Shown in pieces: positions 49,834 through 64,000 of a stretch of DNA of 64,000 bases (positions within the stretch are counted from its first letter, which is position 1; each line of letters opens with the position of its first letter). Origin of the DNA: Amycolatopsis sp. 2-15 (GTDB lineage Bacteria; Actinomycetota; Actinomycetes; Mycobacteriales; Pseudonocardiaceae); contig NZ_CP127294.1 in NCBI RefSeq assembly GCF_030285625.1, positions 7,720,001-7,784,000 on the forward strand, in the 5' to 3' direction. The notes under the pieces were generated by a model, which ran no database searches, had not been told where the DNA came from, and saw only the letters and a list, made by a program, of their open reading frames with translations. The translations under genes and the position numbers were made by a program.

Positions 49834-49970
49834 CCTTCATCGCCTTCCGGACGCTCGTGCAGTTGTCGCCGACCACACTGGGCGAACGAGCGAGCCGGGT
49901 CAACCAAACATCGGATGTGTGGCCTTTTCTGTCCACTCGTTTGTCCGGCCCGGGAATTCCACTGTGGACC

Positions 49971-50888
49971 TCACCGCGCGAGCAGTCGCCGGGCCTCCGG
50001 CACCACGTCACGGGCGAATGCGGTGACCTGAGCGGGGGAATTGTCTTCGGGCATGAAGAGGAACCCGGTGTAGGGCAGTTCGCCGCCGAGTTTCGCCAGC
50101 AGCACGGCCCATTCCGGCGCGGTGCCCCGCACGGGGTCTGCACCCTGCTCCAGTCGCGGCCGGCCGGGAGTTTCGGTGACCGTGCCGACGATCTGGGCGA
50201 TCCGGCGCACGGCCCGCGGGTTCCGGCCCGCCGCAACCGCCGCGTCGTCGATGACGCGGTTGGCCTCGGCCCACTTCTCGTAGGGCAGGTAGGTGGCGAT
50301 CGGGGCGGCCCACCCGTCGGCGATCCGGCCGGTCAGCGCGAGGGACTTCGGGCCCTGTGCGCCGACCCAGATCTCGATGGGGTGCACGGGCGCCGGACCC
50401 GGGTGCGCACCCGCGACGGAGTAGAACTCGCCCTCGACCCGCACCGCCGGGCCACCGTCGGCCCAGAGCGCGCGAAGGATGGTGACCGCCTCCTCCAGTG
50501 CGACGTTCGACTCGCGCGGACTGCGGCGCGGCACTCCGAGCTGCGTGATCGCGTCCCAATAGCCACCCGCGCCGAGCGCCAGCTCGAACCGGCCGCCGGA
50601 CACGATGTCCAGGGCAGCCGCGGTCTTCGCCAGCAGTGCCGGCGGCCGCAGCGGCAGGCTCGCGACGTCCGGGAAGACGCTGATCTTGTCCGTGTGCGCC
50701 AGCAGGTCTCCGGCCAGCACGAACGTGTCCAGCTGGTCCGGCGCGAACGGCGCGTCCTGGATTCCGAGGAGGTCGAGGCCGCCCTCGTCCGCGGCCGCGG
50801 CGAAGGCGCGGTCGGCCGCCAGATCGGTGGTGGGCGTCAGCGCAACGCCGAACAGCAGGTCGTCGCGCAAAGCGCTCCCGTCAAGCAA
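49971..50888 (-). CDS. LLM-class (F420/FMN) oxidoreductase, left paralogue
   Basis: A 305-residue luciferase-family oxidoreductase. Blocks: LLFGVALTPTTD at the start, GLDLLGIQDAPF, then VSGGRFELALGAGGYWDAI and the GPKSLALTGRIADGWAAP block. It is closely similar to the protein at 62149-63057 through most of its length, which marks the two as paralogues. No AUG is available; the frame opens with TTG at 50888, and a second TTG a few codons in has GGGAG in front, so the start is uncertain. Family members oxidise or reduce small organics with F420 or FMN. Confidence 0.8.
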   Translation of the reverse strand: MLDGSALRDDLLFGVALTPTTDLAADRAFAAAADEGGLDLLGIQDAPFAPDQLDTFVLAGDLLAHTDKISVFPDVASLPLRPPALLAKTAAALDIVSGGRFELALGAGGYWDAITQLGVPRRSPRESNVALEEAVTILRALWADGGPAVRVEGEFYSVAGAHPGPAPVHPIEIWVGAQGPKSLALTGRIADGWAAPIATYLPYEKWAEANRVIDDAAVAAGRNPRAVRRIAQIVGTVTETPGRPRLEQGADPVRGTAPEWAVLLAKLGGELPYTGFLFMPEDNSPAQVTAFARDVVPEARRLLAR

Positions 50889-50971
50889 TAGACATTACCG
50901 TCAATGATGATGCCGAGATCCGGCGCGCGACGCCATTCGGCGGTGGATCGTTTTCCGCCGAGATCGGATCA

Positions 50972-51005
50972 GGAGGTCCGGCGCGGGTGGCGGCGCCGAA
51001 CCTCC
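50972..51005 (-). terminator. Hairpin downstream of the aldehyde dehydrogenase
   Basis: GGAGGT-CGGCGC and its complement form a 13-position stem with one mismatch around an eight-base loop, 43 bp beyond the ALDH stop on its strand. There is no T-tract. Confidence 0.4.
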
Positions 51006-51047
51006 CTGTCGATCACGTCCAGCGGTTACGCTCGGAGCCGATCGGCG

Positions 51048-52571
51048 TCAGTCGACCGGCGGCCACACGGGGATCGGCCCGCGGCCCGACGGGAACCGCA
51101 CGTTCTTGGCCCGCACGAACTCGTGCAGGGTCTCGGCGGCGTTCTCCCGGCCGAACCCGCTTCCCTTCACGCCGCCGAACGGCGAGCCGAGGAAGGAGCG
51201 GCGGACGTAGTTGTTCACGAAGACCATGCCGGCCTGCAGGTCGCGCGCCAGGTTCGAGGCGCGGAAGTGATCGCGCGTGATGAGCGCGGCCGTGAGCCCG
51301 TACGCGGTGCCGTTGGCGATGCGCACGGCTTCTTCATCGGTGTCGTGGACCATGATCGATGCGACCGGGCCGAAGATCTCCTCCTGCGCGACGGTGTGGT
51401 CGGGCTGCACGCCCGTGAGCACGGTCGGCGGGACCCAGAAGCCGCCGGCCAGGCGCGCGTCGTCCGGAAGCTCGGCCTGGAAGACGATCTTCGCGCCTTC
51501 CTTCACCGCGGTGTCGATGTAGCCGAGCACCTTCTGCTGCTGGCGCGCGTCGACCATCGCACCGATGTCGGTGGCCTTGTCGAGCCCGTCGCCGACCTGC
51601 AGCTTCGCGGTCGCGGCCACGAACCTCTCCACGAACTCGTCGTGCAACGACCGGTGCACGACGATCCGCGCGGTGGACGTGCAGGCCTCGCCCTGGTTGT
51701 AGAACATGCCCTCGATCGCCACGGTGACGGCGACCTCCAGGTCGGCGTCGTCGAGCACGATCAGGGCGTTCTTGCCGCCGAGCTCCATCGTGGCGAAGGT
51801 GAGGTTCTCGGCGGCGGTGCGCAGCACGGCCTGGCCGGTCTTGGTCGCGCCGGTGAAGGTGATCCGCTCGACGGTGGGGTGCCCGGCGAGCGCGGGGCCC
51901 GCGGACATCCCCGACACGGCGTTCACGACACCCGGCGGCAGGACCTGGTTCACGATCTCCACGAGCCGCAGCACGGCCAGCGGCGCCTGCTCCCCCGGCT
52001 TGATGACCACGGTGTTGCCCGCGGCCAGCGCCGGTGCGGTCTTCTTGGTGAAGTGCATCGGCGGCCAGTTGAACGGCAGGATCGCGGCCACGACCCCGTA
52101 GGGCTCGTAGTGCACGCGCGCTTCGATGGGTCCCTGGTCCAGCACCTCGCCGTGGAGCGTCTCGGCGAGGCCGCTGAAGTAGTCGAACCCGGCGGAGCTG
52201 AACGCCACGTCGAACCGCCGCGCGTCGCGTACCGGTTTGCCGACCTCACGGGCCTCGAGCTCGGCCAGCTCCTCGGCGTGCTCCCGGATCAGGGCCGCAA
52301 CCTTGCGCAGCAGCCCGCTGCGCTCGCGCGGAGTGAGGCGGCCCCACGCCCCCTCGTACGCCCGGCGAGCGTCGCGGACGGCCTGCTCGACGACGTCGTC
52401 GCTCGCTTCCACCACGTCGGCGAGCCGGCCCCCGGTGGCCGGCTCGAGAACGGTGAAGGCCGGCGCGTCTTCGGGCGTCACCCAGCTGCCGCCGATGAAC
52501 GAGCCCCAGCGGGCACGCGGCAGCGGGCCACGGCCGTCGGCCGGAAGGACGGGTTCCAGGGCGTCGGACAT
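51048..52571 (-). CDS. NAD(P)-dependent aldehyde dehydrogenase
   Basis: A 507-residue ALDH with Asn168 in FNWPP, general base Glu263 in MELGGKNA and nucleophile Cys297 in NQGEACTST, and the C-terminal VNNYVRRSFLGSPFGGVKGSGFGREN. The first 40 residues extend beyond a typical ALDH start. ATG at 52571 with AAGGGA upstream. It is divergent from an amidohydrolase with a TGCAATCGTTTGCG site in between, so both belong to the proposed LacI regulon. Substrate unknown. Confidence 0.88.
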   Translation of the reverse strand: MSDALEPVLPADGRGPLPRARWGSFIGGSWVTPEDAPAFTVLEPATGGRLADVVEASDDVVEQAVRDARRAYEGAWGRLTPRERSGLLRKVAALIREHAEELAELEAREVGKPVRDARRFDVAFSSAGFDYFSGLAETLHGEVLDQGPIEARVHYEPYGVVAAILPFNWPPMHFTKKTAPALAAGNTVVIKPGEQAPLAVLRLVEIVNQVLPPGVVNAVSGMSAGPALAGHPTVERITFTGATKTGQAVLRTAAENLTFATMELGGKNALIVLDDADLEVAVTVAIEGMFYNQGEACTSTARIVVHRSLHDEFVERFVAATAKLQVGDGLDKATDIGAMVDARQQQKVLGYIDTAVKEGAKIVFQAELPDDARLAGGFWVPPTVLTGVQPDHTVAQEEIFGPVASIMVHDTDEEAVRIANGTAYGLTAALITRDHFRASNLARDLQAGMVFVNNYVRRSFLGSPFGGVKGSGFGRENAAETLHEFVRAKNVRFPSGRGPIPVWPPVD

Positions 52572-52660
52572 CGTGAGATCCCTTCGGTGGACTGTGAACG
52601 TTTGCGGTGGAACACAGCCGAAGCTGCCATTGACCACAGACTACTCAGCTCTTACGATAT

Positions 52661-52674
52661 TGCAATCGTTTGCG
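52661..52674. promoter_or_regulatory. LacI-type operator a (TGCAATCGTTTGCG)
   Basis: One of four TGCAATCG-type sites in the 52-60 kb island, between the divergent ALDH and amidohydrolase genes. TATTGCAATCG places a possible -10 next to it. Confidence 0.65.
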
Positions 52675-52734
52675 GCCATGCGGGCCGGTCTTGCAGGTTT
52701 CGCAATGAGGCACAGTTCGGCAGGAGGCAGTCGG

Positions 52735-54099
52735 ATGAGGACTTTGCTCAGCGGAGGCGCGGTCGTCGCGCCGGGTCGCCCGGAACTTCTCGGCGGAGGA
52801 GACCTCCTGATCGACGGGACGACCATCGCCGAGCTCGGCCCGGTGGGGTCGGTGAGCCGGGAGGGTGTGGACCGCGTCGTGGACACGACGGGTTCGATCG
52901 TGCTGCCGGGGCTGGTCAACGCCCACCAGCACGACTGGTACCTCTACGGCAAGGGGCTCGGCTGCGACGTGCTGCTGGAGCAGTGGATCACCGGCTGCCT
53001 CGTGCCGCTCAAGGACAACCTCGACGTGGACGACCTGCGGGTGGCCAGTGAGCTCGCCGCGCTCGACATGCTGCGCGGCGGGACCACCAGCTCCGTCAAC
53101 CACCTCGTGAACGAGACGACGATCGCCGACGAGGAGGCGATCCTGGGACCCGTGGCCGACGCCGGGGTCCGCCAGTTCTTCGCGAAGGTCATCCGCCCGC
53201 ACGACGCGCGCGACGACTACGCCGGCGCGCGCGAGTCGTTCGAGAAGTGGGACGGCGCCGCCGAGGGCCGGATCCGCGTCGGCTTCGTGCTCGAGGCGAC
53301 GGCCCACTGGGTCGCGCTCGGCACGAGCTCCGAGGAGATGGTGGTGGGCGGCCACGAGCTCGCCGTGGAGAAGGACACGTTCGTCACCTCGCACATCGCG
53401 GGCGGCACCATGTCGCGCGACGAGGGTTACCTCAAGTGGGTGCTGGAAACCGGCCGCACCGACGTGCAGTTCCTGCACCGCCTCGGCGTCCTCGACGACC
53501 GCTGGATCCTCGCGCACACCATCCACCCGCGCGGCAACGACCTCGACCTCATCGCGGCCTCGCGCAGCACCGTCGCGCACACTCCGAGCTCCGAAGCCGC
53601 CCGCGGCGCCGGCATCACACCGGTGAAACACATGCTGGACAACGACATCCGCGTCGCCCTCGGCACCGACGGCCCGATGGTCGACCTCACCAACGACATG
53701 GTCGAGCAGCTCAAGTGGACCCGCCTTCTGCAGAACCAGCTCCACGAACACCCCGGCTCGATCGACCTCGGCAAGCTCGTGACGATGGCCACCGAAGACA
53801 GCGCTTACGCCGTCCGCGCGGACAAGTACCTCGGTTCGTTGCGGCCGGGCTACGCCGCGGACATCGCGGTCTTCGACCTCGACACCCTGCACGCGGGGCC
53901 GGTGCACCGCCCCCTGACGACGTTCGTCCACGCGGCTCGGGGGACGGACGCGAAGCATGTCTTCGTGAACGGTGAGCAGCTGCTGGACGACGGCCGGTTC
54001 ACCCGGGTGGACGAGCTGCACGTGACGGATCTGATGCGCCGGGCCGGTGACCGGGCCCGCGCGCTGGGCCGGCGGGCGGGGCTGCTGCCGCAGGACTGA
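52735..54099 (+). CDS. Amidohydrolase of the ATZ/TRZ (cytosine/guanine-deaminase) type
   Basis: A 454-residue metal-dependent hydrolase. The HxH metal motif is NAHQHDWY (His64/His66) after the strand SIVLPGLV; further ligands lie in SHIAGG and LAHTIHP, and the Asp in LGTDGPMVD. This is the subtype of guanine deaminase, atrazine chlorohydrolase and hydroxyatrazine hydrolase. Substrates are usually heterocycles or aryl/alkyl-amine derivatives. ATG at 52735 has AGGAGG upstream. A strong bidirectional terminator follows. Confidence 0.87.
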   Translation: MRTLLSGGAVVAPGRPELLGGGDLLIDGTTIAELGPVGSVSREGVDRVVDTTGSIVLPGLVNAHQHDWYLYGKGLGCDVLLEQWITGCLVPLKDNLDVDDLRVASELAALDMLRGGTTSSVNHLVNETTIADEEAILGPVADAGVRQFFAKVIRPHDARDDYAGARESFEKWDGAAEGRIRVGFVLEATAHWVALGTSSEEMVVGGHELAVEKDTFVTSHIAGGTMSRDEGYLKWVLETGRTDVQFLHRLGVLDDRWILAHTIHPRGNDLDLIAASRSTVAHTPSSEAARGAGITPVKHMLDNDIRVALGTDGPMVDLTNDMVEQLKWTRLLQNQLHEHPGSIDLGKLVTMATEDSAYAVRADKYLGSLRPGYAADIAVFDLDTLHAGPVHRPLTTFVHAARGTDAKHVFVNGEQLLDDGRFTRVDELHVTDLMRRAGDRARALGRRAGLLPQD

Positions 54100-54112
54100 G
54101 TCCCTCGAGGCG

Positions 54113-54159
54113 AAACCCCCGGGCCGACAACGGTTCCTCGCTGTCGGACCGGGGTTTTC
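54113..54159. terminator. Bidirectional terminator between convergent genes
   Basis: AAACCCC pairs with GGGGTTT and the inner GGCCGACA with TGTCGG-CC, giving an almost continuous stem with a T-run on the plus strand (GGGGTTTTCT) and an equivalent tract on the other strand. It lies between the amidohydrolase and LacI stops. Confidence 0.75.
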
Positions 54160-54303
54160 TTGCAGATCAGCCTGATTCACAGGTTTCCTCACGGCGCCCC
54201 CGTGCGCTCGGCGGGATCGATGCGTTCCGCCGACGCTGACCGGCGCCAGAGCGGTGATCGCCGTGCCGGCAGGCTTTCATTGCGCCGCAGCAGAAGCGGG
54301 TGG

Positions 54304-55311
54304 CTAGCTCTGCGCCGCGGCCGTCGAGTCGCGGCGGACCAGTTCGACCGGGAGGACCACGCGTTTCGCGGGCGCCGTCGGGGAGGCGATGCGTTCCAGC
54401 AGCAGGCGGGCGGCTTCGCGGCCGATGTCGTAGTGCGGGATGCGCACGGTGGTCAGCGAGGGGCGCTGGCGATCGACGAACGGCATGTCGTTGAAGCCCG
54501 TCACGGAGACGTCGCCGGGGACGGTGCGGCCGAGTTCGGCCAGGGCGGAGTAGCAGCCGAGGGCGATGAGGTCGTTGCCGGCGAGCACCGCGGTCAGCGA
54601 GGGGTGCGCGGCGAGCAGGCGCAGGGTCGCGGCGTGGCCCGCGGTTTCGGTGAACGCGCCGGCGAACTCGACCGCGTCGGTGGCCGCCTCGAGGCCCAGG
54701 GACGTCGTGGCGTCGAGGTAGCCGCGGTAGCGCTCCCAGCCGGTGGAGAGGTCGCGCGGGCCGGCGACGTGGCCGATGCGCGTGTGGCCGAGGTCGGTGA
54801 GGTGGCGCACGAGCAGGTGGATGCCCGCGGCGTTGTCGGCGGTGACCGACGGGATGCCGCCGTTGTCGGTGCGGCGATTGACGAGCACCGTGGGCACCGA
54901 GGACGTCAGCTCGTCGGAACGGCGGCTGGTGGCCAGGATGAAGCCGTCGATCTGGCGGCCGCGCATGGCGGTGACCAGCTCGCGCTCGCGGTCCGGGTCG
55001 CCGTCTGTGTTGCCGACGAGGGCCATGTACCCGGCGTCCCGCAGACCGTCCTCGATACCGCGGACGATCGGCGGGAACACCGGGTTGCGCAGGTCCGGGA
55101 TGATGACCCCGGCGACCGACGACGTGCGCGTGCGCAGGCTGCGCGCGGCGGAGTTGGGCGCGTAGCCCAGGGCGCGGGCGGCCTCGGCGACCCGGCTCGC
55201 CGTCCGCGCGTTGACCATCCCGCGGGTGGCGGGGTTGAGCGCCCGGCTCGCGGTCGCGGCGTGCACCCCCGCCCGCTCGGCGACGTCCTTGATCGTCGGC
55301 GGCCTGTTCAT
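54304..55311 (-). CDS. LacI-family repressor of the catabolic island
   Basis: A 335-residue LacI/GalR regulator: HTH at residues 5-25 (TIKDVAERAGVHAATASRAL), hinge NSAARSLRTRTSSVAGVI, and a sugar-type binding core (VLAGNDLIALGCYSAL, VTGFNDMPFVDRQRPSL). It is the last gene of a minus-strand operon with the beta-hydroxyacid dehydrogenase, the M24 protein and an ALDH (25 bp gap), so it is likely autoregulated through the operator at 58983. The ligand could be a non-sugar, as in other catabolic LacI proteins. Confidence 0.9.
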   Translation of the reverse strand: MNRPPTIKDVAERAGVHAATASRALNPATRGMVNARTASRVAEAARALGYAPNSAARSLRTRTSSVAGVIIPDLRNPVFPPIVRGIEDGLRDAGYMALVGNTDGDPDRERELVTAMRGRQIDGFILATSRRSDELTSSVPTVLVNRRTDNGGIPSVTADNAAGIHLLVRHLTDLGHTRIGHVAGPRDLSTGWERYRGYLDATTSLGLEAATDAVEFAGAFTETAGHAATLRLLAAHPSLTAVLAGNDLIALGCYSALAELGRTVPGDVSVTGFNDMPFVDRQRPSLTTVRIPHYDIGREAARLLLERIASPTAPAKRVVLPVELVRRDSTAAAQS

Positions 55312-55336
55312 CGTGCCAGCATAGAGTGACCGGACG

Positions 55337-56770
55337 TCACCAAGAGACGGCGACGTACTTGGACTCCGTGTACTCCAGCAGACCCTCGTGCCCGCCCTCG
55401 CGGCCGAGCCCGCTCTGCTTCACGCCGCCGAACGGCGCGGCCGGCTCGGAGACCAGACCACGGTTGAGCCCGACCATCCCCGACTCCAGCGCCTCCGAAA
55501 GCCGCAGGCCGCGCGCCAGGTCGCGGGTGTACACGTAGGACACCAGGCCGTGCTCGGTGTCGTTGGCCAGCCGGACGACCTCGTCCTCGGTGTCGAACGT
55601 GACGATCGGCGCCACCGGGCCGAAGATCTCCTCCGCGAGCACCGGCGCGCCCGCCGGGACGTCGGCCAGGACGGTCGCCGGGTAGTAGAACCCCGTTCCC
55701 TCCGGGCGTTTTCCCCCGACCAGCACACGGGCGCCGGCGCCGACGGCCCCGTCGACCAGCTCGGTCACCTTGTCGACGGCGGCTTCGTTGACGAGCGGGC
55801 CGAGCTCGATCCCGGCGTCGGTGCCCGGGCCGACGCGCAGCGCGCCCATCCGCTCAGCCAGCCGCCGGCCGAACTCGGCGGCCACGCCGCGCTGCACGAA
55901 GAACCGGTTGGCCGCCGTGCAGGCCTGGCCGCCGTTGCGCATCTTGGCGACCATCGCACCCTCGACCGCCGCGTCGAGGTCGGCGTCGTCGAAGACCAGG
56001 AACGGCGCGTTGCCGCCCAGCTCCATCGACGTGCTGACCACGGTGTCCGCGGCCACGTGCAGCAGCGCTCGGCCGACCTCCGTCGACCCGGTGAACGACA
56101 GCTTCCGCACGCGCGGGTCGTGGACCATCGCCCCGACCACCTTGCCGGACCGCGTGGACGGGACCACGTTCACCGTGCCCGCCGGCGCGCCGGCCTCTTC
56201 GAGGATGGCGGCGATCGCGAGCGCGGTGAGCGGGGTTTCCGACGCCGGCTTGAGGATCACGGTGCAGCCGGCGCCGAGCGCGGGCGCGATCTTGCGCGTG
56301 GCCATGGCGGCCGGGAAGTTCCACGGCGTCACGAGCACGCTCACGCCGATCGGCTGCCGCAGCACCAGGATGCGGTTGGCGCCGCCCGGCGCGGTCTGCA
56401 CGGTGCCCGCCACGCGCACGGTTTCCTCGGCGTACCAACGGAAGAACTCGGCGGCGTAGTTCACCTCGCCCCGCGCGTCGGGCAGCGCCTTGCCGTTCTC
56501 CCGCACGATCAGCTCGGCGAGCTCCTCGGCGCGCTCGTGCATCAGCGTGAACGCACGCTGCAGCACGTCGGCGCGCGCCCGGGGCGCGGTCGCACCCCAC
56601 GCGGGCAGCGCGGCCGCAGCGGCGTCGACGGCGGCCAGGCCGTCCTCGACGCTGCCGTTCGCGACCGTGGTGATGGGCTCGGCCGTGGCCGGGTCGATCA
56701 CGGTGATGCGGGACCCGTCGGACGAGGGCCGCCACTCACCGCCGATGAACAACTCTTCGGGGACCTTCAC
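55337..56770 (-). CDS. Aldehyde dehydrogenase (succinate-semialdehyde type)
   Basis: A 477-residue ALDH close to GabD/SSADH: LFIGGEWRP start, Asn151 in TPWNFPAAM, Glu250 in MELGGNAP, Cys284 in GGQACTAAN, and the SGLGREGGHEGLLEYTE end. It probably oxidises a semialdehyde formed in the same pathway. Its start is 9 bp from the M24 gene stop. A second, dissimilar ALDH is encoded at 51048-52571. Confidence 0.88.
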   Translation of the reverse strand: MKVPEELFIGGEWRPSSDGSRITVIDPATAEPITTVANGSVEDGLAAVDAAAAALPAWGATAPRARADVLQRAFTLMHERAEELAELIVRENGKALPDARGEVNYAAEFFRWYAEETVRVAGTVQTAPGGANRILVLRQPIGVSVLVTPWNFPAAMATRKIAPALGAGCTVILKPASETPLTALAIAAILEEAGAPAGTVNVVPSTRSGKVVGAMVHDPRVRKLSFTGSTEVGRALLHVAADTVVSTSMELGGNAPFLVFDDADLDAAVEGAMVAKMRNGGQACTAANRFFVQRGVAAEFGRRLAERMGALRVGPGTDAGIELGPLVNEAAVDKVTELVDGAVGAGARVLVGGKRPEGTGFYYPATVLADVPAGAPVLAEEIFGPVAPIVTFDTEDEVVRLANDTEHGLVSYVYTRDLARGLRLSEALESGMVGLNRGLVSEPAAPFGGVKQSGLGREGGHEGLLEYTESKYVAVSW

Positions 56771-56779
56771 AGTGGCTCC

Positions 56780-58024: not shown

Positions 58025-58964
58025 CGGTGGGCTCCAGACCGTCGGTCACGTCGGCGTTCTCGGACACCAGGGTGATCCCCGAGCGCCGGGCCTGCTCCTC
58101 GACGAGCACGGCGAAGTCCTGCTCCACCAACCCGGCGCCGATCGCGCCGGCCACGATCTGCGCGGTCGCCGAGGCCACCGGCATCGGCGCTTCCAGCTCA
58201 CGGGCGGCGGCGAGACCGAGGTCGAAGTCCTTGCGCAGCAACGGCATCGTGAACGTGGGCGTGAAGTCGAGGTTCACCAGGGCCGGCGTCTTGTAGCGGG
58301 AAAAGACCGAGCCCATCACGGAGTCGTTGAGGAAGGCCATGAACGCCTCGCGCGTCACACCGCCCTTCTCCGCCAGCACCGTGATCTCGGCCAGCGACTG
58401 GATCACCACGCCGAGGAAGACGTTGTGGCAGATCTTCACCAGGCGCGCCACCTCGTCCTCACCGACGTAGGTCACGCCGCGGCCGAGCACCTCCAGCATC
58501 GGGCGCACCTCGTCGAACACCGGGCGCGGGCCGGAGATCGCGAGCGTCAGCTTCCCCGAGCTCACCACCTTCGGGTTGCCGCTCACCGGCGCGGCCAGCA
58601 ACTCGGTGCCGCGCTTCGCCGCCTCCACGCGGACGGCGGCCGAGCCTTCGGCGGAGACCGTGGACGAGTCGATCACGATCTTCGGCGCCTGCGCCGGGTC
58701 CGTGAACAGGCCCCCGTCGCCCGACGTCACGTGCTGGAGGTCGGCCGAAGCCGACACCATGGTGAACACCACGTCGCGACCGGCGAGGTCCACCGGACGG
58801 TCGACCACTGTCGCTCCGTCGGCGACCAGCTCTTCGGCCTTGGCGCGGGTGCGGTTGCAGACTGCGACGTCGTAACCGGCCGCGAGCAACCGGCGCACCA
58901 GCGCCGCACCCATGCGGCCTGTGCCGATCCAGCCGATCGTGGGTCGGTCGGTGTGGGTCACCAT
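58017..58964 (-). CDS. Beta-hydroxyacid dehydrogenase (3-hydroxyisobutyrate type)
   Basis: A 315-residue NAD(P)-dependent oxidoreductase of the 6-PGDH/HIBADH family: Rossmann motif IGWIGTGRMGAALVRRLL at the start, substrate block AAPVSGNPKVVSSGKLTL, catalytic Lys in RLVKICHNVFLG, and PTFTMPLLRKDFDLGLAAA. ATG at 58964 has GGAGG eight bases upstream. A perfect TGCAATCGTTTGCA site overlaps the region just in front. It heads the operon with the M24 protein, ALDH and LacI. Confidence 0.88.
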   Translation of the reverse strand: MVTHTDRPTIGWIGTGRMGAALVRRLLAAGYDVAVCNRTRAKAEELVADGATVVDRPVDLAGRDVVFTMVSASADLQHVTSGDGGLFTDPAQAPKIVIDSSTVSAEGSAAVRVEAAKRGTELLAAPVSGNPKVVSSGKLTLAISGPRPVFDEVRPMLEVLGRGVTYVGEDEVARLVKICHNVFLGVVIQSLAEITVLAEKGGVTREAFMAFLNDSVMGSVFSRYKTPALVNLDFTPTFTMPLLRKDFDLGLAAARELEAPMPVASATAQIVAGAIGAGLVEQDFAVLVEEQARRSGITLVSENADVTDGLEPTDV

Positions 58965-58982
58965 GACATGTACCTCCGTAGC

Positions 58983-58996
58983 TGCAATCGTTTGCA
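58983..58996. promoter_or_regulatory. LacI-type operator b (TGCAATCGTTTGCA, perfect arms)
   Basis: The best copy of the motif, with TGCAA and TTGCA arms, 19 bp in front of the dehydrogenase start and 106 bp from the binding-protein start. Divergent control of both directions is likely. Confidence 0.75.
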
Positions 58997-59101
58997 ACCA
59001 TCATGCGGTGCCAGCTAGGATCCGTCAAGTAGCGAAAAGAAAGTCGAGCTGCGAACGTCCGCAGCCGACCTCCCCGGACGAGCCAGGAAAGGCGGCGCCC
59101 C

Positions 59102-60019
59102 GTGCCTTCGATCAAGCTGGGCACCTTCAGCCCCTCGGTCCTCCTGTCGGTCGCCTCCGCCACCGGCGCCCTGGCCGAGGCCGGGCTCGAGGTCACGGAA
59201 GTGCCGGCGAAAACGTCGGCCCACCAGTTCGAGGACCTCTTCGAAAGCCGCCTCGACGCCGCGTTCACCAACCCGGACAACGTGCTGGCCTACCGCTGCG
59301 TCCCCGGCAACCCGCTGGGCCGGACCGGCGACGTGCGGATCCTCGGCGCGGTCGACCGCGGCCTGGGGCTGGGCCTGTTCACCGCGCCCGGCGTCGCCGG
59401 ACCCGCGCGCGGCGGCCGGCTCGGCGTCGACGTGCCCGGGTCGGGCTTCGCCTTCATCGCGTTCGAGCTCCTGGCGCGCGCCGGCCTGGCCCGCGACAGC
59501 GACTACGAGGTCGTCAGCCTCGGCTCCACCCCGAAACGCGCGCGGGCCCTGGTCGAGGGCACCGTGGACACCACCGTGCTCAATGCCGGCAACGACCTCG
59601 TCGCCGAAGCCCGGGGCGCCCGGCGCGTCGCGTCGGTCACCGAGATCGGCCCGTACGCCGGGACCGTTCTGTGTGCCACCGCCGACGGGATCGCCGCGCA
59701 CGGCGCAGCCCTCGCCGCCCTGCTCACGGTCACCTCCGCCGTGGCCGGGGAGCTGGCCGCGGGCCGGCACCGGGAGGTCGCGCTGGCCGCGGTGGCCGAC
59801 CGCCTCGGACTGACAGGCCCGAGCGCCGAACGCCACCTGGCGATCCTGACCGATCCCGCGGTGGGCCTGGTCTCCGACGCCCGACTGACCCGCGCGGAGC
59901 TCGACACCGTCGTCCACCTGCGCAACCGGCACTCCCGCGCCGCGACGCCGGTCACCGCGGAAGAGGCGTTGCGAAGCGGCCTGGTCGACGCCTCACTCCT
60001 CCCACAGAATGAAGCGTGA
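59102..60019 (+). CDS. Cytosolic NMT1/TauA-like binding protein
   Basis: A 305-residue protein resembling the type II periplasmic binding fold of NMT1/TauA/SsuA proteins (KLGTFSPSVLLSVASATG, FEDLFESRLDAAFTNPDNVL, then VDVPGSGFAFIAFELLARAG), but with no signal peptide, so it stays inside the cell. The final 75 residues are helical (VADRLGLTGPSAERHLAILT), an extension beyond the binding fold. GTG start, weakly supported ribosome-binding site. The MFS gene follows 176 bp later. A sensor, chaperone or enzyme role is possible; not a normal ABC component here. Confidence 0.6.
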   Translation: MPSIKLGTFSPSVLLSVASATGALAEAGLEVTEVPAKTSAHQFEDLFESRLDAAFTNPDNVLAYRCVPGNPLGRTGDVRILGAVDRGLGLGLFTAPGVAGPARGGRLGVDVPGSGFAFIAFELLARAGLARDSDYEVVSLGSTPKRARALVEGTVDTTVLNAGNDLVAEARGARRVASVTEIGPYAGTVLCATADGIAAHGAALAALLTVTSAVAGELAAGRHREVALAAVADRLGLTGPSAERHLAILTDPAVGLVSDARLTRAELDTVVHLRNRHSRAATPVTAEEALRSGLVDASLLPQNEA

Positions 60020-60020
60020 C

Positions 60021-60034
60021 TGCGATCGTTTGTC
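60021..60034. promoter_or_regulatory. LacI-type operator c (TGCGATCGTTTGTC)
   Basis: A degenerate copy just after the binding-protein stop and 120 bp before the next start. Matches operator b at 11 of 14 positions. Confidence 0.4.
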
Positions 60035-60142
60035 ATCGCGTCGCAGCATTGAAAACCCGGCTATCGAGCCGTCCTAGCTGCAAACCTTCCGCATCTGGCA
60101 GTTGATCAACATTGACCTCAGGCCATCCGCCGCCTACATTGC

Positions 60143-60156
60143 TGCAATCGATCGCA
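60143..60156. promoter_or_regulatory. LacI-type operator d (TGCAATCGATCGCA)
   Basis: A copy 40 bp before the MFS start, with near-symmetric arms TGCAATCG/ATCGCA. It suggests a separate LacI-controlled promoter for the transporter. Confidence 0.65.
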
Positions 60157-60195
60157 GCTGTGACGCTCGTCTCCGGCGCCCGGGAAGGCTCCCCC

Positions 60196-61452
60196 ATGAA
60201 AAGCTCTCAGAGAACCACCGCGCCCCAGGTCCCGAAGGCACGCCGGGTTCCGCTCGCCGTGTCGATCACCGGCTGGACGCTGCTCGTCCTCTCCTACCTG
60301 ATCAACGCCATGGACCGGCAGGTGTTCTACCCGCTGCTCCCGGAGATCAGCGCCGAGCACGGCTTCAGCCTCTCGCAGGGCGGGCTCCTCGCGACCGGCT
60401 TCACCCTCGGCATCGCCCTGGCGGGTCTGCCCGCCGGGTACCTCGTCGAGAAGCTGCCCCGCAAGACGGTGCTCGTGATCAGCGTCTTCTTCTACTCCGC
60501 CGGCACCCTCGCCACGCCGCTCGCCTCCGGCTTCGCGGACATGGCCGTCTACCGGCTGATCTCCGGCGCCGGCGAGGGCATGCAGGCGACCGCGCTGTAC
60601 GCGGTGGTCGGCTCGTTCTTCGTGCTGCGCCGGTCGTTCGCCTTCGGCGTGCTGGGCGCGGTGTTCGGTACCGGCGTGTTCCTCGGCCCGCTGGTCGGCA
60701 CCGCCATCGCGCAGAACTTCGGGGGCTGGCACACGCCGTTCCTGTTCTACGGCATCGCGGGCCTGGTCCTGACCGTCCTCATCGGACTGCTGGTCCGGCG
60801 CGACGTGACCGACCTCGACGCCGGTGTGGTGCGCGGCGCCGAGATCCCGACCGACCACGTGCCGAGCTCGCCCTTCAACCGCAACACCGCGATGCTGTGC
60901 CTCGCCTGCATCGCCGGCGGGCTCGTGTTCTACGGCTACCTCGGCCTGTATCCGACGTACCTGCGCCAGCAGCTGCACTACACCGCGTCCGAGGCCGCCC
61001 TCGCCACGAGTGTGGTCGGCGCCGGCGCCGCGACGTCGATCCTCACCGGCTGGCTCGCCGACCGGTTCAACCCACGCACGATCCTGCTCATCACCTACGC
61101 GGGGGTGGCCGTGAGCGCGTGGCTGGTCTTCAACGGCTCCGCGAGCCACGCCTGGCAGTACACGTGGTCCTTCGTCCTGGCCGTGTTCGTGGCGGGCTCG
61201 CTGTTCACCACGCTCAACGCCACCATGCAGCGCGCGGTGCGGCCCCACTACGTCGGCCGCGCAGCCGGGATGTTCGTCTCGTTCTACTACGTGGCGGCCG
61301 CGTTCTCCGGGCTCATCTTCGCATCGCTCGTCGGCTCGCTGGGCTGGCACGGCGCCGCGTTGTGGCAGCTGACCATCCTGCCGCTGGCGACGCTGATCCC
61401 GTTGTGGTTCATCGACTCCCGCAAGCTCCTCGATCCGCGCCGCGACCGCTGA
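60196..61452 (+). CDS. MFS transporter (importer-like)
   Basis: A 418-residue, 12-helix MFS protein with AMDRQVFYPLLPEIS in helix 1 (the D-R-x-x-F pattern of the anion/aromatic-acid and sugar-phosphate groups), LPAGYLVEKLPRKTVLV as motif A, and GTGVFLGPLVG. The substrate is likely the organic acid or heterocycle catabolised by the surrounding genes. ATG at 60196 follows GGGAAGG. A strong terminator comes directly after it. Confidence 0.85.
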   Translation: MKSSQRTTAPQVPKARRVPLAVSITGWTLLVLSYLINAMDRQVFYPLLPEISAEHGFSLSQGGLLATGFTLGIALAGLPAGYLVEKLPRKTVLVISVFFYSAGTLATPLASGFADMAVYRLISGAGEGMQATALYAVVGSFFVLRRSFAFGVLGAVFGTGVFLGPLVGTAIAQNFGGWHTPFLFYGIAGLVLTVLIGLLVRRDVTDLDAGVVRGAEIPTDHVPSSPFNRNTAMLCLACIAGGLVFYGYLGLYPTYLRQQLHYTASEAALATSVVGAGAATSILTGWLADRFNPRTILLITYAGVAVSAWLVFNGSASHAWQYTWSFVLAVFVAGSLFTTLNATMQRAVRPHYVGRAAGMFVSFYYVAAAFSGLIFASLVGSLGWHGAALWQLTILPLATLIPLWFIDSRKLLDPRRDR

Positions 61453-61458
61453 ACGCAC

Positions 61459-61498
61459 GGACGCCGGCCACGCGCCCGCAGGCGCGTGGCCGGCGTCC
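61459..61498. terminator. Perfect 18-bp bidirectional terminator
   Basis: GGACGCCGGCCACGCGCC (61459-61476) pairs completely with 61481-61498 around CGCA, between the convergent MFS gene and the minus-strand unknown gene. GAAAAGG follows. Confidence 0.8.
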
Positions 61499-61507
61499 GA
61501 AAAGGAC

Positions 61508-62119
61508 TCATCGGCGGACGAGCTCGCGCCCCAGCTGCTTCTCGAGGTGCACCTCGATGAACACCCGCAGGTACGGGTCGTTCTCGTACATGTTGAAGGC
61601 CGCGGCCAGCTCCGGCTGCTCCTGCTCGGTCAGGAAGACGATTCGCCACATGTTGAGCGGGTCCTCTTCCGAACCGCCGACGGAGTGCTCGACGTGGAAG
61701 ATCGGCTGCCCGGTGCCGGCGGTGAACACCCGGCCGTCGGGCGCCTCGAAGCGCTCCGCGCCGACGAAGAACGCCCGCCGGCTCTCGTGGTCGAGGCGGA
61801 CGTGCTCGATGATCAGGTCGTAGTTGTCGGGGTCGGCCCAGCGCCGCTGCTGCGATACACGGGTGAAGTCCTCGAACTGCCCGTTGTGGACACTCGGGAA
61901 CTTCTCGGCGCTGCCGGGCTTCACGACCGTCGGGATGTACACGTCCGGCGCCGCCGCCTTGCGCTTTTCCATGTCCCACAGGTCGGTGCCGGTGTACTGG
62001 AACGGCGGGGTCACCTCGTAGCGCTCGCGCAGCACCTCGTTCACCCGCACCGGCGTCAGCTTCGCCGTGGTGCTGCCCGGCGCGTCCCACGCTTGGGTGA
62101 TGATCGCTTCGTGGTCCAT
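61508..62119 (-). CDS. Protein of unknown function in the oxidoreductase operon, 203 aa
   Basis: A soluble 203-residue protein starting MDHEAIITQAWDAPGSTTAK. It has several aromatic, beta-rich blocks (PPFQYTGTDLWDMEKRK, IIEHVRLDHESRRAFFVG, GQPIFHVEHSVGG) and a C-terminal acidic helix (YLRVFIEVHLEKQLGRELVR). No family recognised. It could be a substrate-binding or steroid-delta-isomerase-like domain. It is 29 bp downstream of the LLM oxidoreductase gene on the same strand, hence probably in the same pathway. GAAAGG precedes the ATG at 62119. Confidence 0.6.
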   Translation of the reverse strand: MDHEAIITQAWDAPGSTTAKLTPVRVNEVLRERYEVTPPFQYTGTDLWDMEKRKAAAPDVYIPTVVKPGSAEKFPSVHNGQFEDFTRVSQQRRWADPDNYDLIIEHVRLDHESRRAFFVGAERFEAPDGRVFTAGTGQPIFHVEHSVGGSEEDPLNMWRIVFLTEQEQPELAAAFNMYENDPYLRVFIEVHLEKQLGRELVRR

Positions 62120-62148
62120 CGGTTGTCCTTTCAGGGAAAGAGAGTTTC

Positions 62149-63057
62149 TCAAGCGGGTTGTGCGTCCAACAGCAGCCGCACCTCGGGTGCCACTTCCCGA
62201 GCGAAGGACTCGACCTGGTCGATCGCCTGCTCCTCAGGCCAGAACACGAACGTCGTGAACGGCTGTTCTTCGCCGAGGCGGGCCAGCAGCTGCGCCCATT
62301 GCCGCGCCGTGCCCCGCACGGGGTCGGCGCCCTCGTCGACGCGCAGCCGCCCGGGGTTCGCGGTGATCGTGCCGACCACCTGCGCGATCCGGCGGACCGC
62401 CCAGGGATTCCGGCCCGCCGCCTCGGCCGCGTCGTCGATGATGCGGTTGGCCTCGGCCCACTTCTCGTAGGGCAGGTAGGAGGCGATCGGCGCCGCCCAC
62501 CCGTCGGCGATCCGGCCCGTCAGCGCGAGCGCCTTCGGTCCCTGCGAGCCGGTCCAGATCTCGATGGGGTGCGCCGGCGCCGGGCCCGGGTGGGCCCCGG
62601 CGACCTTGTAGTACTCGCCGTCGAACCGGATCGGCTTGCCGCCGTCGGCCCACAGCGCGCGCAGCACCGTGATCGCTTCCTCCAGCGCGACGTTGGCCTC
62701 GGCGGGAGTCCGCCGCGACACCCCGAGCCGGGTGATCGCGTCCCAGTAGCCGCCGGCGCCGAGCGCCAGCTCGAACCGGCCGCCGGACACCAGGTCCAGC
62801 GCCGCCGCCGTCTTCGCCAGCAACGCCGGCGGCCGCAGTGGCAGGTTCGCCACGTCCGGGAAGACGCTGATCTTGCTCGTGTGCGCCAGCAGATCGCCGG
62901 CGAGGACGAACGTGTCGAGGCAACTCGGCACGTACGGGTGGTCCTGGATCCCGATCAGGTCCAGCCCGGCCGCTTCCGCCGCGCGGGCGAACTGGCGGTT
63001 TCCCACCACGTCGTCGATCGGTGTCAGCGAGACACCGAACTGCAGGTCCTTGCTCAT
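62149..63057 (-). CDS. LLM-class (F420/FMN) oxidoreductase, right paralogue
   Basis: A 302-residue luciferase-family protein with the same block structure as the left paralogue at 49971: LQFGVSLTPIDD, GLDLIGIQDHPY, LVSGGRFELALGAGGYWD, GRIADGWAAPIASYLPYEKW. ATG at 63057. It overlaps the upstream esterase gene by four bases (ATGA), and the unknown 203-residue gene follows, so these form one operon with a further gene beyond the window. Confidence 0.85.
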   Translation of the reverse strand: MSKDLQFGVSLTPIDDVVGNRQFARAAEAAGLDLIGIQDHPYVPSCLDTFVLAGDLLAHTSKISVFPDVANLPLRPPALLAKTAAALDLVSGGRFELALGAGGYWDAITRLGVSRRTPAEANVALEEAITVLRALWADGGKPIRFDGEYYKVAGAHPGPAPAHPIEIWTGSQGPKALALTGRIADGWAAPIASYLPYEKWAEANRIIDDAAEAAGRNPWAVRRIAQVVGTITANPGRLRVDEGADPVRGTARQWAQLLARLGEEQPFTTFVFWPEEQAIDQVESFAREVAPEVRLLLDAQPA

Positions 63058-63953
63058 GCCACGTGCTCCCGGACGAATGCGCCGATGCGGTCGACCGACG
63101 CCGCCGCCTCGGGGAGGAACGATACGAAGTGCTGCCAGATGTGCGGGGCGCCCTTGGTCTCGACCAGCTCCGAAGCCACGCCTGCCGCCAGCGCGCGCTC
63201 GTGGAAGCGGCGCGAGTCGTCGATCATGACCTCTTCGGTGCCGACTTCGAGGTGCAGCGGCGGCAGCCCCGTGAGGTCGCCGAACAGCGGCGACGCGAAC
63301 GGGTCCCGTGGGTCGTGGTCGCCGAGGTAACCGGCCGCGAAGCCGCGCAGCGCTTCCCGGCTTACGAACGGGTCGCGGTCGGCGCGCTCGGCGAACGAGG
63401 GCGCGGAGACCGTCAGATCCGTCCACGGCGACACCGGCACCGCCGCCGCGGGCAGCGGCAGGGCCAGGTCCTTGAGCTTCAACAGCAACGCCAGCGACAG
63501 CCCGCCGCCGGCGGAGTCGCCGCCGACGGCGATCCGGGTCGCCGGCACCGTGTCGAGCAGCGCCCGGTAGGCCGCCACCGCCGCGTCGAGCGCCGCGGGG
63601 AAGCGGTGCTCGGGCGCCAGCGGGTAGTCCGGCAGGTAGACGGTGCCCCGCGAGGCGGTGGCCAGCCGGGCACCCACTTCCCGGTGGTTGTACGCCGAAC
63701 CTTCGGTGTAACCACCGCCGTGGAAGTACAGCAGCGCCCGGCCGGCCACGGAGGCCGGCGTGGTCACCGCGAGCCCCGGGAAGCCCGGGGCCGCGGTGAC
63801 GAGCGCGTCGTCGGGGACGGGGAACTGCTCGCTCCAACGCCGGTAGGCGTCCCGGTGCCGCACGTGTTCCGGCCGGTCGTCGACGGGCATGTGCTCGCCC
63901 ATCGTCGCCAGCAGGTGGTGCGCCTTGGCGAGCTCGGCGCTGAGTGAGATCAT
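63054..63953 (-). CDS. HSL-family alpha/beta hydrolase (carboxylesterase)
   Basis: A 299-residue hormone-sensitive-lipase-type esterase: oxyanion motif FHGGGYTEG (HGGG at 78-81), nucleophile Ser147 in GGDSAGGGL, Asp in LEVGTEEVMIDD and His near the C-terminus in KGAPHIWQHF. It would hydrolyse the ester of the cluster's substrate before or after oxidation by the coupled LLM protein. The ATG at 63953 overlaps the stop of the upstream gene by four bases. Confidence 0.88.
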   Translation of the reverse strand: MISLSAELAKAHHLLATMGEHMPVDDRPEHVRHRDAYRRWSEQFPVPDDALVTAAPGFPGLAVTTPASVAGRALLYFHGGGYTEGSAYNHREVGARLATASRGTVYLPDYPLAPEHRFPAALDAAVAAYRALLDTVPATRIAVGGDSAGGGLSLALLLKLKDLALPLPAAAVPVSPWTDLTVSAPSFAERADRDPFVSREALRGFAAGYLGDHDPRDPFASPLFGDLTGLPPLHLEVGTEEVMIDDSRRFHERALAAGVASELVETKGAPHIWQHFVSFLPEAAASVDRIGAFVREHVA

Positions 63954-64000
63954 TCGTTCTCCTGCGGCAGCAGCACAGGTTTGGTCGCGGTGCCGTTCTT
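63950..64000 (-). CDS. C-terminal end of a gene extending beyond the window
   Basis: Sixteen codons and a stop on the minus strand, ending KPVLLPQENE, overlapping the esterase start by ATGA. It is too short to identify, but it shows that the esterase-LLM operon has at least one more gene to the right. Confidence 0.6.
   Translation of the reverse strand, partial: KNGTATKPVLLPQENE

What the first reader, a model, noticed from the sequence alone, without database searches (positions are those of the whole stretch)
49971..64000. LacI-controlled catabolic island with TGCAATCGTTTGCA operators and no known substrate
The sequence shows four copies of a 14-bp palindrome-like motif at 52661, 58983, 60021 and 60143, located at the divergent ALDH/amidohydrolase promoter, the divergent dehydrogenase/binding-protein promoter and upstream of the MFS gene. 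A LacI gene lies at the end of the dehydrogenase-M24-ALDH operon. The combination of HSL esterase, two LLM oxidoreductases, ATZ/TRZ amidohydrolase, creatinase-like M24, HIBADH, two ALDHs, a signal-less NMT1-like protein, MFS and one unknown protein is not a standard pathway I recognise. Inference: it degrades an ester- or amide-linked (hetero)cyclic or N-containing compound.
Basis: partly seen in the sequence, partly recalled or inferred. Interest (0 to 1): 0.8.

Follow-up and report, generated by a model that had tools for sequence, protein, structure and literature searches.

The report
LacI-controlled catabolic operons, unknown substrate
A soil actinobacterium carries a set of breakdown genes switched by one LacI-type repressor, and the same switch and core genes recur in many bacterial genera, which marks a widespread degradation pathway whose substrate and key enzyme are not yet known.

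Summary
The motif sites are real. Three are strong operators (52661, 58983, 60143); the fourth (60021) is weak and at most auxiliary, and two more weak sites (52593, 59050) lie 67-68 bp from strong ones, a spacing that recurs in sister genomes. Each strong site sits 2-3 nt 3' of the -10 of a sigma-70-type promoter with a 17-bp spacer, a repressor geometry. In the 10-Mb genome only five sites fit TGCAAWCGWTTGCA with up to one mismatch; three are in the island. In 80 related loci (M24 71-88% identical) the relaxed operator occurs 104 times against 1-7 in five shuffles, 95 near gene starts. The conserved core is HIBADH-M24-ALDH2-LacI-NMT1-like plus a VOC protein, GntR and a 2-oxoacid dehydrogenase E1/E2, which in this genome lies ~155 kb beyond the window. 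ALDH1, amidohydrolase and MFS belong to the regulon in several Amycolatopsis; HSL, LLM1, LLM2 and the unknown protein are not core. The M24 protein has Cys instead of a metal-ligand Asp in every homologue checked, so it is probably not an ordinary peptidase. The NMT1-like protein looks cytosolic; homologues are fused to a molybdenum-hydroxylase 2Fe-2S domain. The substrate is undetermined; an N-heterocycle or cyclic amide is my leading guess.

The parts
49971..50888 (-). LLM2, luciferase-like flavin/F420 oxidoreductase; downstream of ALDH1, possibly co-transcribed; not core
   Evidence: Pfam PF00296 131 bits; 74% identical to LLM1; 0 of 80 related loci; present in G059
51048..52571 (-). ALDH1, aldehyde dehydrogenase (BADH-like, below equivalog cut-off)
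   Evidence: >=50% identity in 7 of 80 loci; operators near ALDH1 starts in five other loci
52593..52606 (.). weak auxiliary site TGTGAACGTTTGCG, 68 bp from 52661, 21 nt before the ALDH1 start
   Evidence: 6.2 bits; aligned block kept in G059 and G054, 7.7 bits in G059 and 12.3 bits at 68 bp in G054
52630..52658 (+). promoter-like TTGACC-17 nt-TACGAT towards the amidohydrolase
   Evidence: one of 3 promoter-like hits in 52500-60300, shuffle mean 0.3; conserved
52661..52674 (.). strong operator TGCAATCGTTTGCG, 2 nt after the -10
   Evidence: 20.0 bits; identical in G059 and G054
52735..54099 (+). amidohydrolase of the ATZ/TRZ / deaminase type
   Evidence: Pfam PF01979 128 bits; nearest solved relatives include deaminases and chlorohydrolases; kept in G059, G061, G054 and Wenjunlia
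54304..55311 (-). LacI-family repressor, last gene of the HIBADH operon (autoregulation expected)
   Evidence: Pfam PF00356, PF13377; recognition helix VHxxTASRALN shared with 35 of the 40 locus LacI proteins listed
55337..56770 (-). ALDH2, succinate-semialdehyde-dehydrogenase-like
   Evidence: TIGR01780 568 bits, cut-off 646; >=50% identity in 34 of 80 loci
56780..58024 (-). M24-fold protein with Cys273 in place of a metal-ligand Asp; core enzyme
   Evidence: Pfam PF00557; alignment to 1pv9; Cys273 in 81 of 81 aligned sequences and in 14 of 14 further segments covering it, three of them already counted
58017..58964 (-). HIBADH-type beta-hydroxyacid dehydrogenase, first gene of the operon
   Evidence: Pfam PF03446, PF14833; >=50% identity in 65 of 80 loci
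58983..58996 (.). strong operator TGCAATCGTTTGCA, 18 nt before the HIBADH start codon
   Evidence: 23.8 bits; identical in the five Amycolatopsis promoters aligned
59000..59028 (-). promoter-like TTGACG-17 nt-CATGAT towards HIBADH
   Evidence: promoter scan; TTGAC in the 48 nt before the operator in 22 of 26 other HIBADH promoters against 2.9% of random windows
59050..59063 (.). auxiliary site TGCGAACGTCCGCA, 67 bp from 58983, towards NMT1
   Evidence: 8.9 bits; sites 67 bp from the strong one also in G059 (8.9), G061 (10.4) and G068 (12.3)
59102..60019 (+). NMT1/Thi5-like PBP-fold protein without leader, probably cytosolic
   Evidence: AlphaFold pLDDT 95.6; Foldseek PBP-II fold; CoxS fusions among homologues
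60021..60034 (.). weak, at most auxiliary site TGCGATCGTTTGTC, 122 bp before 60143
   Evidence: 9.7 bits; 13.2 bits in near-identical G059; no counterpart at this spacing in G054 or G061, whose MFS promoters have weak sites at 68 and 77 bp instead
60112..60140 (+). promoter-like TTGACC-17 nt-TACATT towards MFS
   Evidence: promoter scan; alignment
60143..60156 (.). strong operator TGCAATCGATCGCA, 2 nt after the -10
   Evidence: 20.6 bits; conserved in G059, G054, and as TGCAATCGTTCGCA in G061
60196..61452 (+). MFS importer candidate
   Evidence: Pfam PF07690 229 bits; G059 97%, G054 83%, G061 64%; Wenjunlia 57% with operators
61508..62116 (-). unknown protein, no Pfam; peripheral here
   Evidence: 184 homologues, 120 listed, none with a functional name; the 74% identical G061 protein (L130:12152-12775) has a 25.3-bit operator in front
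62149..63066 (-). LLM1, luciferase-like oxidoreductase; peripheral
   Evidence: PF00296; 0 of 80 loci; 67% identical paralogue beside GntR-VOC-E1-E2 in L104
63054..63953 (-). HSL-type alpha/beta hydrolase; peripheral
   Evidence: PF07859 178.7 bits; 0 of 80 loci

Best explanation
The island is the local version of a widespread catabolic regulon. A dedicated LacI-family repressor binds strong operators that cover the start region of sigma-70-type promoters, helped by weaker auxiliary sites (67, 68 and 122 bp away here), and blocks the HIBADH-M24-ALDH2-LacI operon, the divergent NMT1-like gene, the ALDH1/amidohydrolase pair and the MFS gene (geometry and conservation shown; binding and looping inferred). 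When the substrate or an early intermediate is present the repressor lets go, and autoregulation through the last gene resets it (inferred). The substrate enters by MFS here and by Liv-type or Ssu-type ABC transporters in other genera (inferred from operators in front of these genes). Amidohydrolase and, in other genomes, molybdenum hydroxylase, alpha/beta hydrolase or flavin monooxygenase prepare it. The core enzymes, M24 protein, HIBADH and ALDHs, convert it to a 2-oxo acid that a dedicated VOC/E1/E2 set (GntR-linked, ~155 kb beyond the window here) turns into an acyl-CoA (inferred). The substrate is most likely a small N-containing ring or cyclic amide, the M24 protein acting on a C-N bond or as a lyase. 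My confidence is about 0.9 for the regulatory part, 0.75 for M24-HIBADH-E1/E2 being one pathway, and 0.35 for the substrate class.
For: Regulation: 104 relaxed operators against 1-7 in five Markov shuffles of 80 loci; 95 of 104 lie near gene starts (HIBADH 29, NMT1 28, LivSBP 18, ABhyd 11, LacI 10, ALDH1 9; a site may count for two genes), against 27% of random positions. The three promoter-like hits found in 52500-60300 (shuffle mean 0.3) are the ones 2-3 nt before the strong operators. TTGAC within 48 nt upstream in 22 of 26 HIBADH promoters, 2.9% of random windows. Second site >7 bits within 30-200 nt for 54 of 104 sites against 5.2% of shuffled segments; pairs counted from both ends. Footprints within the genus. 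67 sites against 7 reversed-control sites in 13 genomes chosen because they carry the cluster. Shared LacI recognition helix, 35 of 40. Pathway: E1/E2/VOC/GntR near LacI in G061, G054, G068; fused E1 (>=50%) in 33 and VOC in 36 of 80 loci; M24 with E1a-E1b-lipoyl-SSADH-E2 on two Roseobacter plasmids, HIBADH-M24-SSADH-VOC-E1-E2 on a Streptomyces plasmid. N-ring: deaminase-type amidohydrolase; CoxS-NMT1 fusions; XDH (>=40%) in 12 of 80 loci; ABhyd closest to 2,6-dihydroxypseudooxynicotine hydrolase, 150.8 bits; a nitrilase-like ORF with operator in L053 only (family by eye); RidA near M24 paralogues on two Paenarthrobacter plasmids.
Against: No binding, expression or growth data. The ring-attacking enzymes differ between genomes, and the window's amidohydrolase is found in only 1 of 80 loci. 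RidA, amidase and HsaA-type queries found nothing in the 80 loci. 9 of 41 loci with LacI had no strict operator, and 16 of 39 without a LacI match had one. No operator above 7 bits lies in L104, so E1/E2/VOC would not be under this LacI here. G068 has M24, HIBADH, ALDH2, LacI and E1/E2 but no NMT1, ALDH1, amidohydrolase or MFS match in the 20 kb compared. Two Roseobacter relatives have a sugar-type ABC transporter and two SDRs, one of them also ThuA, which points to a polyol-like compound. The M24 orthologue is in only 5 of 80 genomes of the genus.
Confidence: 0.6

Rival explanations
1. The regulon degrades a sugar-like polyol, cyclitol or similar hydroxylated compound; LacI senses it as other LacI proteins sense sugars, HIBADH and SDRs oxidise alcohols, M24 cleaves the oxidised product and E1/E2 finish the 2-oxo acid.
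For: Sugar-type ABC transporter and two SDRs beside M24 on a Phaeobacter and a Tritonibacter plasmid; on the Phaeobacter plasmid also ThuA and a HIBADH-type gene, and its SDRs score best as acetoin reductase; RbsA-like ATPase at >=30% in 9 of 80 loci; the own-genome M24 paralogue lies beside ABC transporter and SDR genes that look sugar-type by sequence.
Against: Operators lie before Liv-type, Ssu-type and MFS transporters; amidohydrolase, XDH and CoxS-NMT1 fusions are not expected for polyols.
Confidence: 0.2
2. Organosulfur or DMSP-like route: M24 is a DddP-like beta-elimination lyase, and NMT1-like, LLM and TauE parts handle sulfonates or sulfite.
For: The M24 N-terminal domain hits only 4rzy/4s00/4s01 (E 0.0012) and 4b28 (E 0.042), entries titled M24 peptidase that I recall as DddP structures; full length they reach 65-68 bits; NCBIfam DddP 103 bits; TauE/SafE protein in L132; Ssu-like transporter with operators in L135; DszB among the fold matches.
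Against: DddP cut-off is 600 bits; prolidases score higher than the DddP entries over the full protein, 87 bits; TauE in 1 of 80 loci; DszB ranks 38th in the fold search behind Thi5 and SsuA; several record titles name soil, fen, bog or palsa.
Confidence: 0.1
3. Pantothenate/pantoate catabolism: M24 is the missing pantothenase, HIBADH and ALDH oxidise pantoate, and E1/E2 act on 2-oxoisovalerate.
For: The order amide hydrolase, hydroxyacid dehydrogenase, ALDH, 2-oxoacid dehydrogenase fits the textbook route (recalled); ALDH2 and HIBADH sit in the M24 operon; a malic-enzyme gene, the type that a dimethylmalate step could need, lies about 5 kb from the M24 paralogue on a Rhodococcus plasmid.
Against: No such gene was recognised by eye in the other gene maps (no search was made for it); the VOC protein, NMT1-like protein and XDH have no role; E2 is closest to pyruvate-dehydrogenase E2.
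Confidence: 0.06
4. The motif is a generic LacI-family half-site and the genes are an accidental grouping.
For: A second LacI gene, 50% identical, with the same recognition-helix pattern and operators lies at 3.80 Mb.
Against: Five sites in 10 Mb, three in the island; 104 against 1-7 in related loci.
Confidence: 0.03

Closest known systems
LacI/GalR-family catabolic regulons
   Same: LacI HTH plus periplasmic-binding-like domain, palindromic operator with central CG, operator at promoter starts, regulator gene in the operon
   Different: Not a recognised sugar pathway; the regulator is below the cut-off of all 18 NCBIfam families it matches. The LacI regulon paper PMC4052901 was searched by terms only; Xaa-Pro, creatinase and hydroxyisobutyrate had no occurrence
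M24 pita-bread enzymes: prolidase, creatinase, DddP, ectoine hydrolase DoeA
   Same: M24 domain over residues 187-394; the other four ligand positions kept; weak N-terminal match to DddP-type entries only
   Different: Second metal Asp replaced by Cys273 in every homologue checked; DddP 103 of 600 bits, DoeA 69 of 613
NMT1/Thi5 and SsuA-type binding-protein fold
   Same: PBP-II fold, Thi5 and SsuA among the best matches
   Different: No leader; homologues fused to CoxS 2Fe-2S domains
Nicotine (pAO1) and sulfonamide (sad/sul) catabolic clusters
   Same: XDH, amine-oxidase-like and pseudooxynicotine-hydrolase-like enzymes in operator-linked neighbourhoods; M24 paralogue near sulR
   Different: Only enzyme classes are shared; those paralogues are about 56% identical and no shared substrate is shown. 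The nicotine comparison is recalled

Membership tests
LacI-family repressor | LacI HTH and sugar-binding-type effector domain above Pfam cut-offs | tested here: met
   PF00356 45.8 (cut-off 27) and PF13377 122.6 (26.5) bits
LacI-family repressor | binds the palindrome and releases it with an effector | not testable with these tools
   comparative footprint only
M24 metallopeptidase (dinuclear) | five metal ligands Asp, Asp, His, Glu, Glu (recalled) | tested here: not met
   alignment to 1pv9 puts C273 on the second Asp; Cys in 81 of 81 aligned sequences
DddP DMSP lyase | NCBIfam NF043017 cut-off of 600 bits | tested here: not met
   103.4 bits
ectoine hydrolase DoeA | TIGR02993 cut-off of 613 bits | tested here: not met
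   68.6 bits
ABC substrate-binding protein | export signal or lipoprotein leader | tested here: not met
   judged from sequence and model: first fold strand at residues 3-8; no signal predictor was run
3-hydroxyisobutyrate dehydrogenase (equivalog) | TIGR01692 cut-off of 291.6 bits | tested here: not met
   140 bits; superfamily domains PF03446 and PF14833 met
succinate-semialdehyde dehydrogenase | TIGR01780 cut-off of 646 bits | tested here: not met
   568 bits for ALDH2
ATZ/TRZ amidohydrolase superfamily | Amidohydro_1 domain above cut-off | tested here: met
   128.1 of 25 bits; no NCBIfam cut-off among the 25 of 36 rows shown was reached

The most novel reading that the evidence does not exclude
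The M24 protein founds a distinct enzyme class, an M24 fold with a Cys-containing metal site that is not a peptidase, at the heart of an uncharacterised catabolic pathway spread over Actinomycetota, Acidobacteriota, Eremiobacterota and Roseobacter plasmids, and in many Actinomycetota controlled by one conserved LacI-operator pair; its NMT1-like partner is a cytosolic protein of a molybdenum-hydroxylase step instead of a transporter part.
Probability: 0.45. Interest if true: 0.75.

Novelty: new variant of a known kind. Interest (0 to 1): 0.6.

Why it matters
Regulator, operators, core enzymes and variable upstream enzymes are now named, so one regulator-ligand screen or one RNA-seq series could identify the substrate. 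Public annotation mostly calls the core enzyme a Xaa-Pro peptidase family protein, which is probably misleading because a metal-ligand residue is replaced.

Tried and rejected
Taking the whole 14-kb block as one unit: dropped, because HSL, LLM1 and LLM2 have no counterpart in the 80 loci and the unknown protein one. Reading the NMT1-like protein as a transporter component: dropped for lack of a leader and because 13 of the 120 listed homologues (of 713 matches) carry the CoxS domain pair. Pantothenate catabolism: the literature listing gave no support. DMSP: equivalog cut-off missed. Structure of M24: the model had pLDDT 64.3, probably because the alignment was too uniform, so no fold search was made with it. 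A profile search of the PDB with alignment A1 was run only at E<=1e-30 and found nothing. Ten literature searches listed no paper that I recognised as describing this gene set; two searches returned none. Of the papers listed, passages were read only from PMC4052901 (two hits, both in its reference list) and PMC10873849; the others were seen as listing and abstract start. The Paenarthrobacter sulfonamide link is recorded as neighbourhood only. The 3-hydroxyanthranilate genes beside the island in G061 (3,4-dioxygenase above cut-off; the others named by eye) were found in no other locus held, so I do not use them for the substrate.

Counts that depend on choices: operator scans used TGCAANCGNTTGCA with up to one mismatch; the 80 loci are the best kept of 592 confirmed and only 54 are 19 kb or longer, so presence counts are lower bounds. 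LacI is counted at >=44% identity (41 loci) and >=40% (43). Markov controls were five per set. ORFs were called by a simple script, not a gene finder, so some starts are approximate. Many gene names were read from sequence by eye. Three rough queries (Ldh2, AmHydL096, AmHydL067) held 6-10 stops, so their frames were probably wrong, and their rows are not used.

Full report
The window is 7720001-7784000 of a single 10,050,063-bp contig. The genome appears to be an Amycolatopsis: the NMT1-like protein is 91% identical to one of Amycolatopsis sp. CA-161197. This placement is inferred.

Observation. Measured by a matrix made from 104 sites in related loci, three are strong (58983 23.8 bits, 60143 20.6, 52661 20.0) and 60021 is weak (9.7). 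In the whole genome four places are within one mismatch of the exact motif and five within one mismatch of TGCAAWCGWTTGCA, with one for the reversed control. Two of those five lie outside the island: 3803586, before a second LacI gene that is 50% identical to this one and has the same recognition-helix pattern, and 5045244, at the start of an alcohol dehydrogenase gene whose 71% identical counterpart lies in the extended regulon of the sister genome G061.

Promoter anatomy. A consensus scan of 52500-60300 found three promoter-like sites (shuffle mean 0.3, sd 0.4), and these are TTGACC-17-TACGAT with the operator two bases later (amidohydrolase), TTGACG-17-CATGAT with the operator three bases later (HIBADH) and TTGACC-17-TACATT with the operator two bases later (MFS) (sequence). 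In promoter alignments the strong operators stay while much of the flanks differ: five genomes for HIBADH/NMT1, four for MFS, three for ALDH1/amidohydrolase. Among 26 HIBADH promoters from other loci that carry a strict operator (of 65 loci with HIBADH above 50% identity), 22 have TTGAC in the 48 bases upstream, 27-40 bases before the operator, against 2.9% of random windows. This is the geometry of a steric repressor. Second, weaker sites are common: 54 of 104 sites have another above 7 bits within 30-200 nt, against 5.2% of shuffled segments, with a spacing peak at 67-69; pairs are counted from both ends. In the window they are 52593 (6.2 bits, 68 bp), 59050 (8.9, 67 bp) and 60021 (9.7, 122 bp). 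Sister promoters repeat the 67-68 bp spacing: G059 67 bp at HIBADH (8.9 bits) and 68 bp at ALDH1/amidohydrolase (7.7), G061 67 bp (10.4), G068 67 bp (12.3), G054 68 bp at ALDH1/amidohydrolase (12.3) and MFS (6.6); the G061 MFS promoter has one at 77 bp (9.1). Single scores near 9 are not significant alone: a 9.0-bit site lies inside the GH92 ORF at 49243. Cooperative binding or looping is my inference.

Conservation. In these the relaxed operator occurs 104 times against 3, 5, 1, 2 and 7 in shuffles; 95 lie near gene starts, most often HIBADH (29), NMT1-like (28), Liv substrate-binding protein (18), an alpha/beta hydrolase (11), LacI (10) and ALDH1 (9), a site counting for both genes of a divergent pair; 27% of random positions meet that criterion. 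Sites occur in 32 of 41 loci with LacI and 16 of 39 without a LacI match. In 13 genomes chosen for carrying the cluster there are 67 sites against 7 control sites. Of 40 locus LacI proteins listed, 35 have the recognition helix VHxxTASRALN, four have TVSRALN and one TASKALN. I take the regulator-operator pair as established by footprint, not by experiment.

Which genes belong. Of 80 loci: HIBADH >=50% identity 65, VOC >=50% 36, ALDH2 >=50% 34, fused E1 >=50% 33, LacI >=40% 43, GntR >=40% 30, NMT1-like >=40% 28, alpha/beta hydrolase >=40% 28, CMD-like >=40% 15, XDH >=40% 12; amidohydrolase and MFS 1 each, unknown protein 1 at >=30%, LLM1, LLM2 and HSL 0. In the genus the M24 orthologue (>=93%) is in 5 of 80 genomes including this one; two further genomes pass the threshold only with a 55-58% paralogue. 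G059 is syntenic throughout, including HSL, LLMs, the unknown protein and the GH92 gene; G061, G054 and G068 carry GntR-VOC-E1-E2 next to LacI, but G068 lacks matches to NMT1, ALDH1, amidohydrolase and MFS in the 20 kb compared. In this genome that half lies at about 7937-7943 kb, together with a third LLM paralogue, and has no operator above 7 bits. In G061 the 74% identical counterpart of the unknown protein, a Liv transporter, an LLM gene unrelated in detail (27% over 149 residues to LLM1), an HsaA-like monooxygenase and a 64% identical MFS gene have operators in front.

Enzymes. M24: the domain matches Pfam, but in the alignment with prolidase 1pv9 residue C273 takes the place of the second Asp; that this Asp is a metal ligand is recalled. 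Cys is found in 81 of 81 aligned sequences and in 14 of 14 segments covering the position from plasmid, paralogue and sister loci at 54-79% identity, three of which are already among the 81. The N-terminal domain matches only entries 4rzy/4s00/4s01 and 4b28, weakly (E 0.0012 and 0.042). NMT1-like: a confident PBP-II model (pLDDT 95.6), best matches 3qsl, 4nmy, Thi5 and SsuA, no leader, and 13 of 120 listed homologues carry a CoxS-type 2Fe-2S domain pair, which links it to the molybdenum hydroxylase seen in part of the neighbourhoods. Alpha/beta hydrolase of other genera: closest to 2,6-dihydroxypseudooxynicotine hydrolase. Amidohydrolase: solved relatives include deaminases and chlorohydrolases of nitrogen rings.

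Plasmid relatives. M24 at 64-67% identity is on Roseobacter plasmids. Both regions read have two SDRs, E1a, E1b, a lipoyl protein, SSADH, E2 and a sugar-type ABC transporter; the Phaeobacter one also has a HIBADH-type gene, ThuA and LpdA, the Tritonibacter stretch does not show these. At 77% it is on a Streptomyces plasmid with LacI, HIBADH, SSADH, VOC, E1, E2, LLM and a flavin reductase. Paralogues at about 56% lie on Paenarthrobacter, Rhodococcus and Streptomyces plasmids, with RidA in the two Paenarthrobacter regions read and none annotated in the Rhodococcus one.

Mechanism. I propose: repression by LacI at promoter starts, induction by the substrate or an intermediate, uptake, ring or amide attack by genome-specific enzymes, then M24, HIBADH and ALDHs, then VOC/E1/E2 to an acyl-CoA. 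Shown: co-conservation, operators, promoter geometry, residue pattern. Inferred: binding, order of steps, substrate. The N-ring reading rests on enzyme classes; the sugar-type transporters of Roseobacter relatives and the rarity of the amidohydrolase argue against it, and I give it 0.35.

Verdict. The finding is an uncharacterised but ordinary-looking LacI regulon wrapped around an unusual and widespread M24 enzyme.

Noticed in passing
window 47557-49836 (-): GH92 gene split into two ORFs by an in-frame stop near 48883; the orthologue in G059 (L106:16398-18677) is one 760-aa ORF.
   Followed up: partly
G000:C1:3803586-3804763 (L016:7587-8764): A second LacI gene, 50% identical, with the same recognition-helix pattern and matching operators, a candidate for cross-talk.
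   Followed up: partly
G000:C1:5045244 (L017:7245): 19.2-bit operator at the start of a zinc alcohol dehydrogenase gene; likely regulon member outside the island.
   Followed up: partly
G000:C1:4993746 (L110:8423-9808): M24 paralogue (56-58%) with the same Cys, beside an XRE-type regulator, SDR and ABC transporter genes that look sugar-type by sequence; no operator above 7 bits.
   Followed up: partly
L015:6078-8284, L112:12821-14078: YceI and isochorismatase-like ORFs (named by eye) recur beside the island in this genome and G061; YceI also lies near M24 paralogues on a Rhodococcus and a Paenarthrobacter plasmid.
   Followed up: no
L143 (Paenarthrobacter sp. R1 plasmid): An M24 paralogue next to RidA and a HIBADH-type gene lies near the flavin reductase gene sulR of sulfonamide breakdown.
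   Followed up: partly
L107:1173-4705: In G061 the island adjoins 3-hydroxyanthranilate 3,4-dioxygenase (above cut-off) and, by eye, ACMSD-, ALDH- and RidA-like genes; the dioxygenase, ACMSD and RidA queries hit no other locus held.
   Followed up: partly
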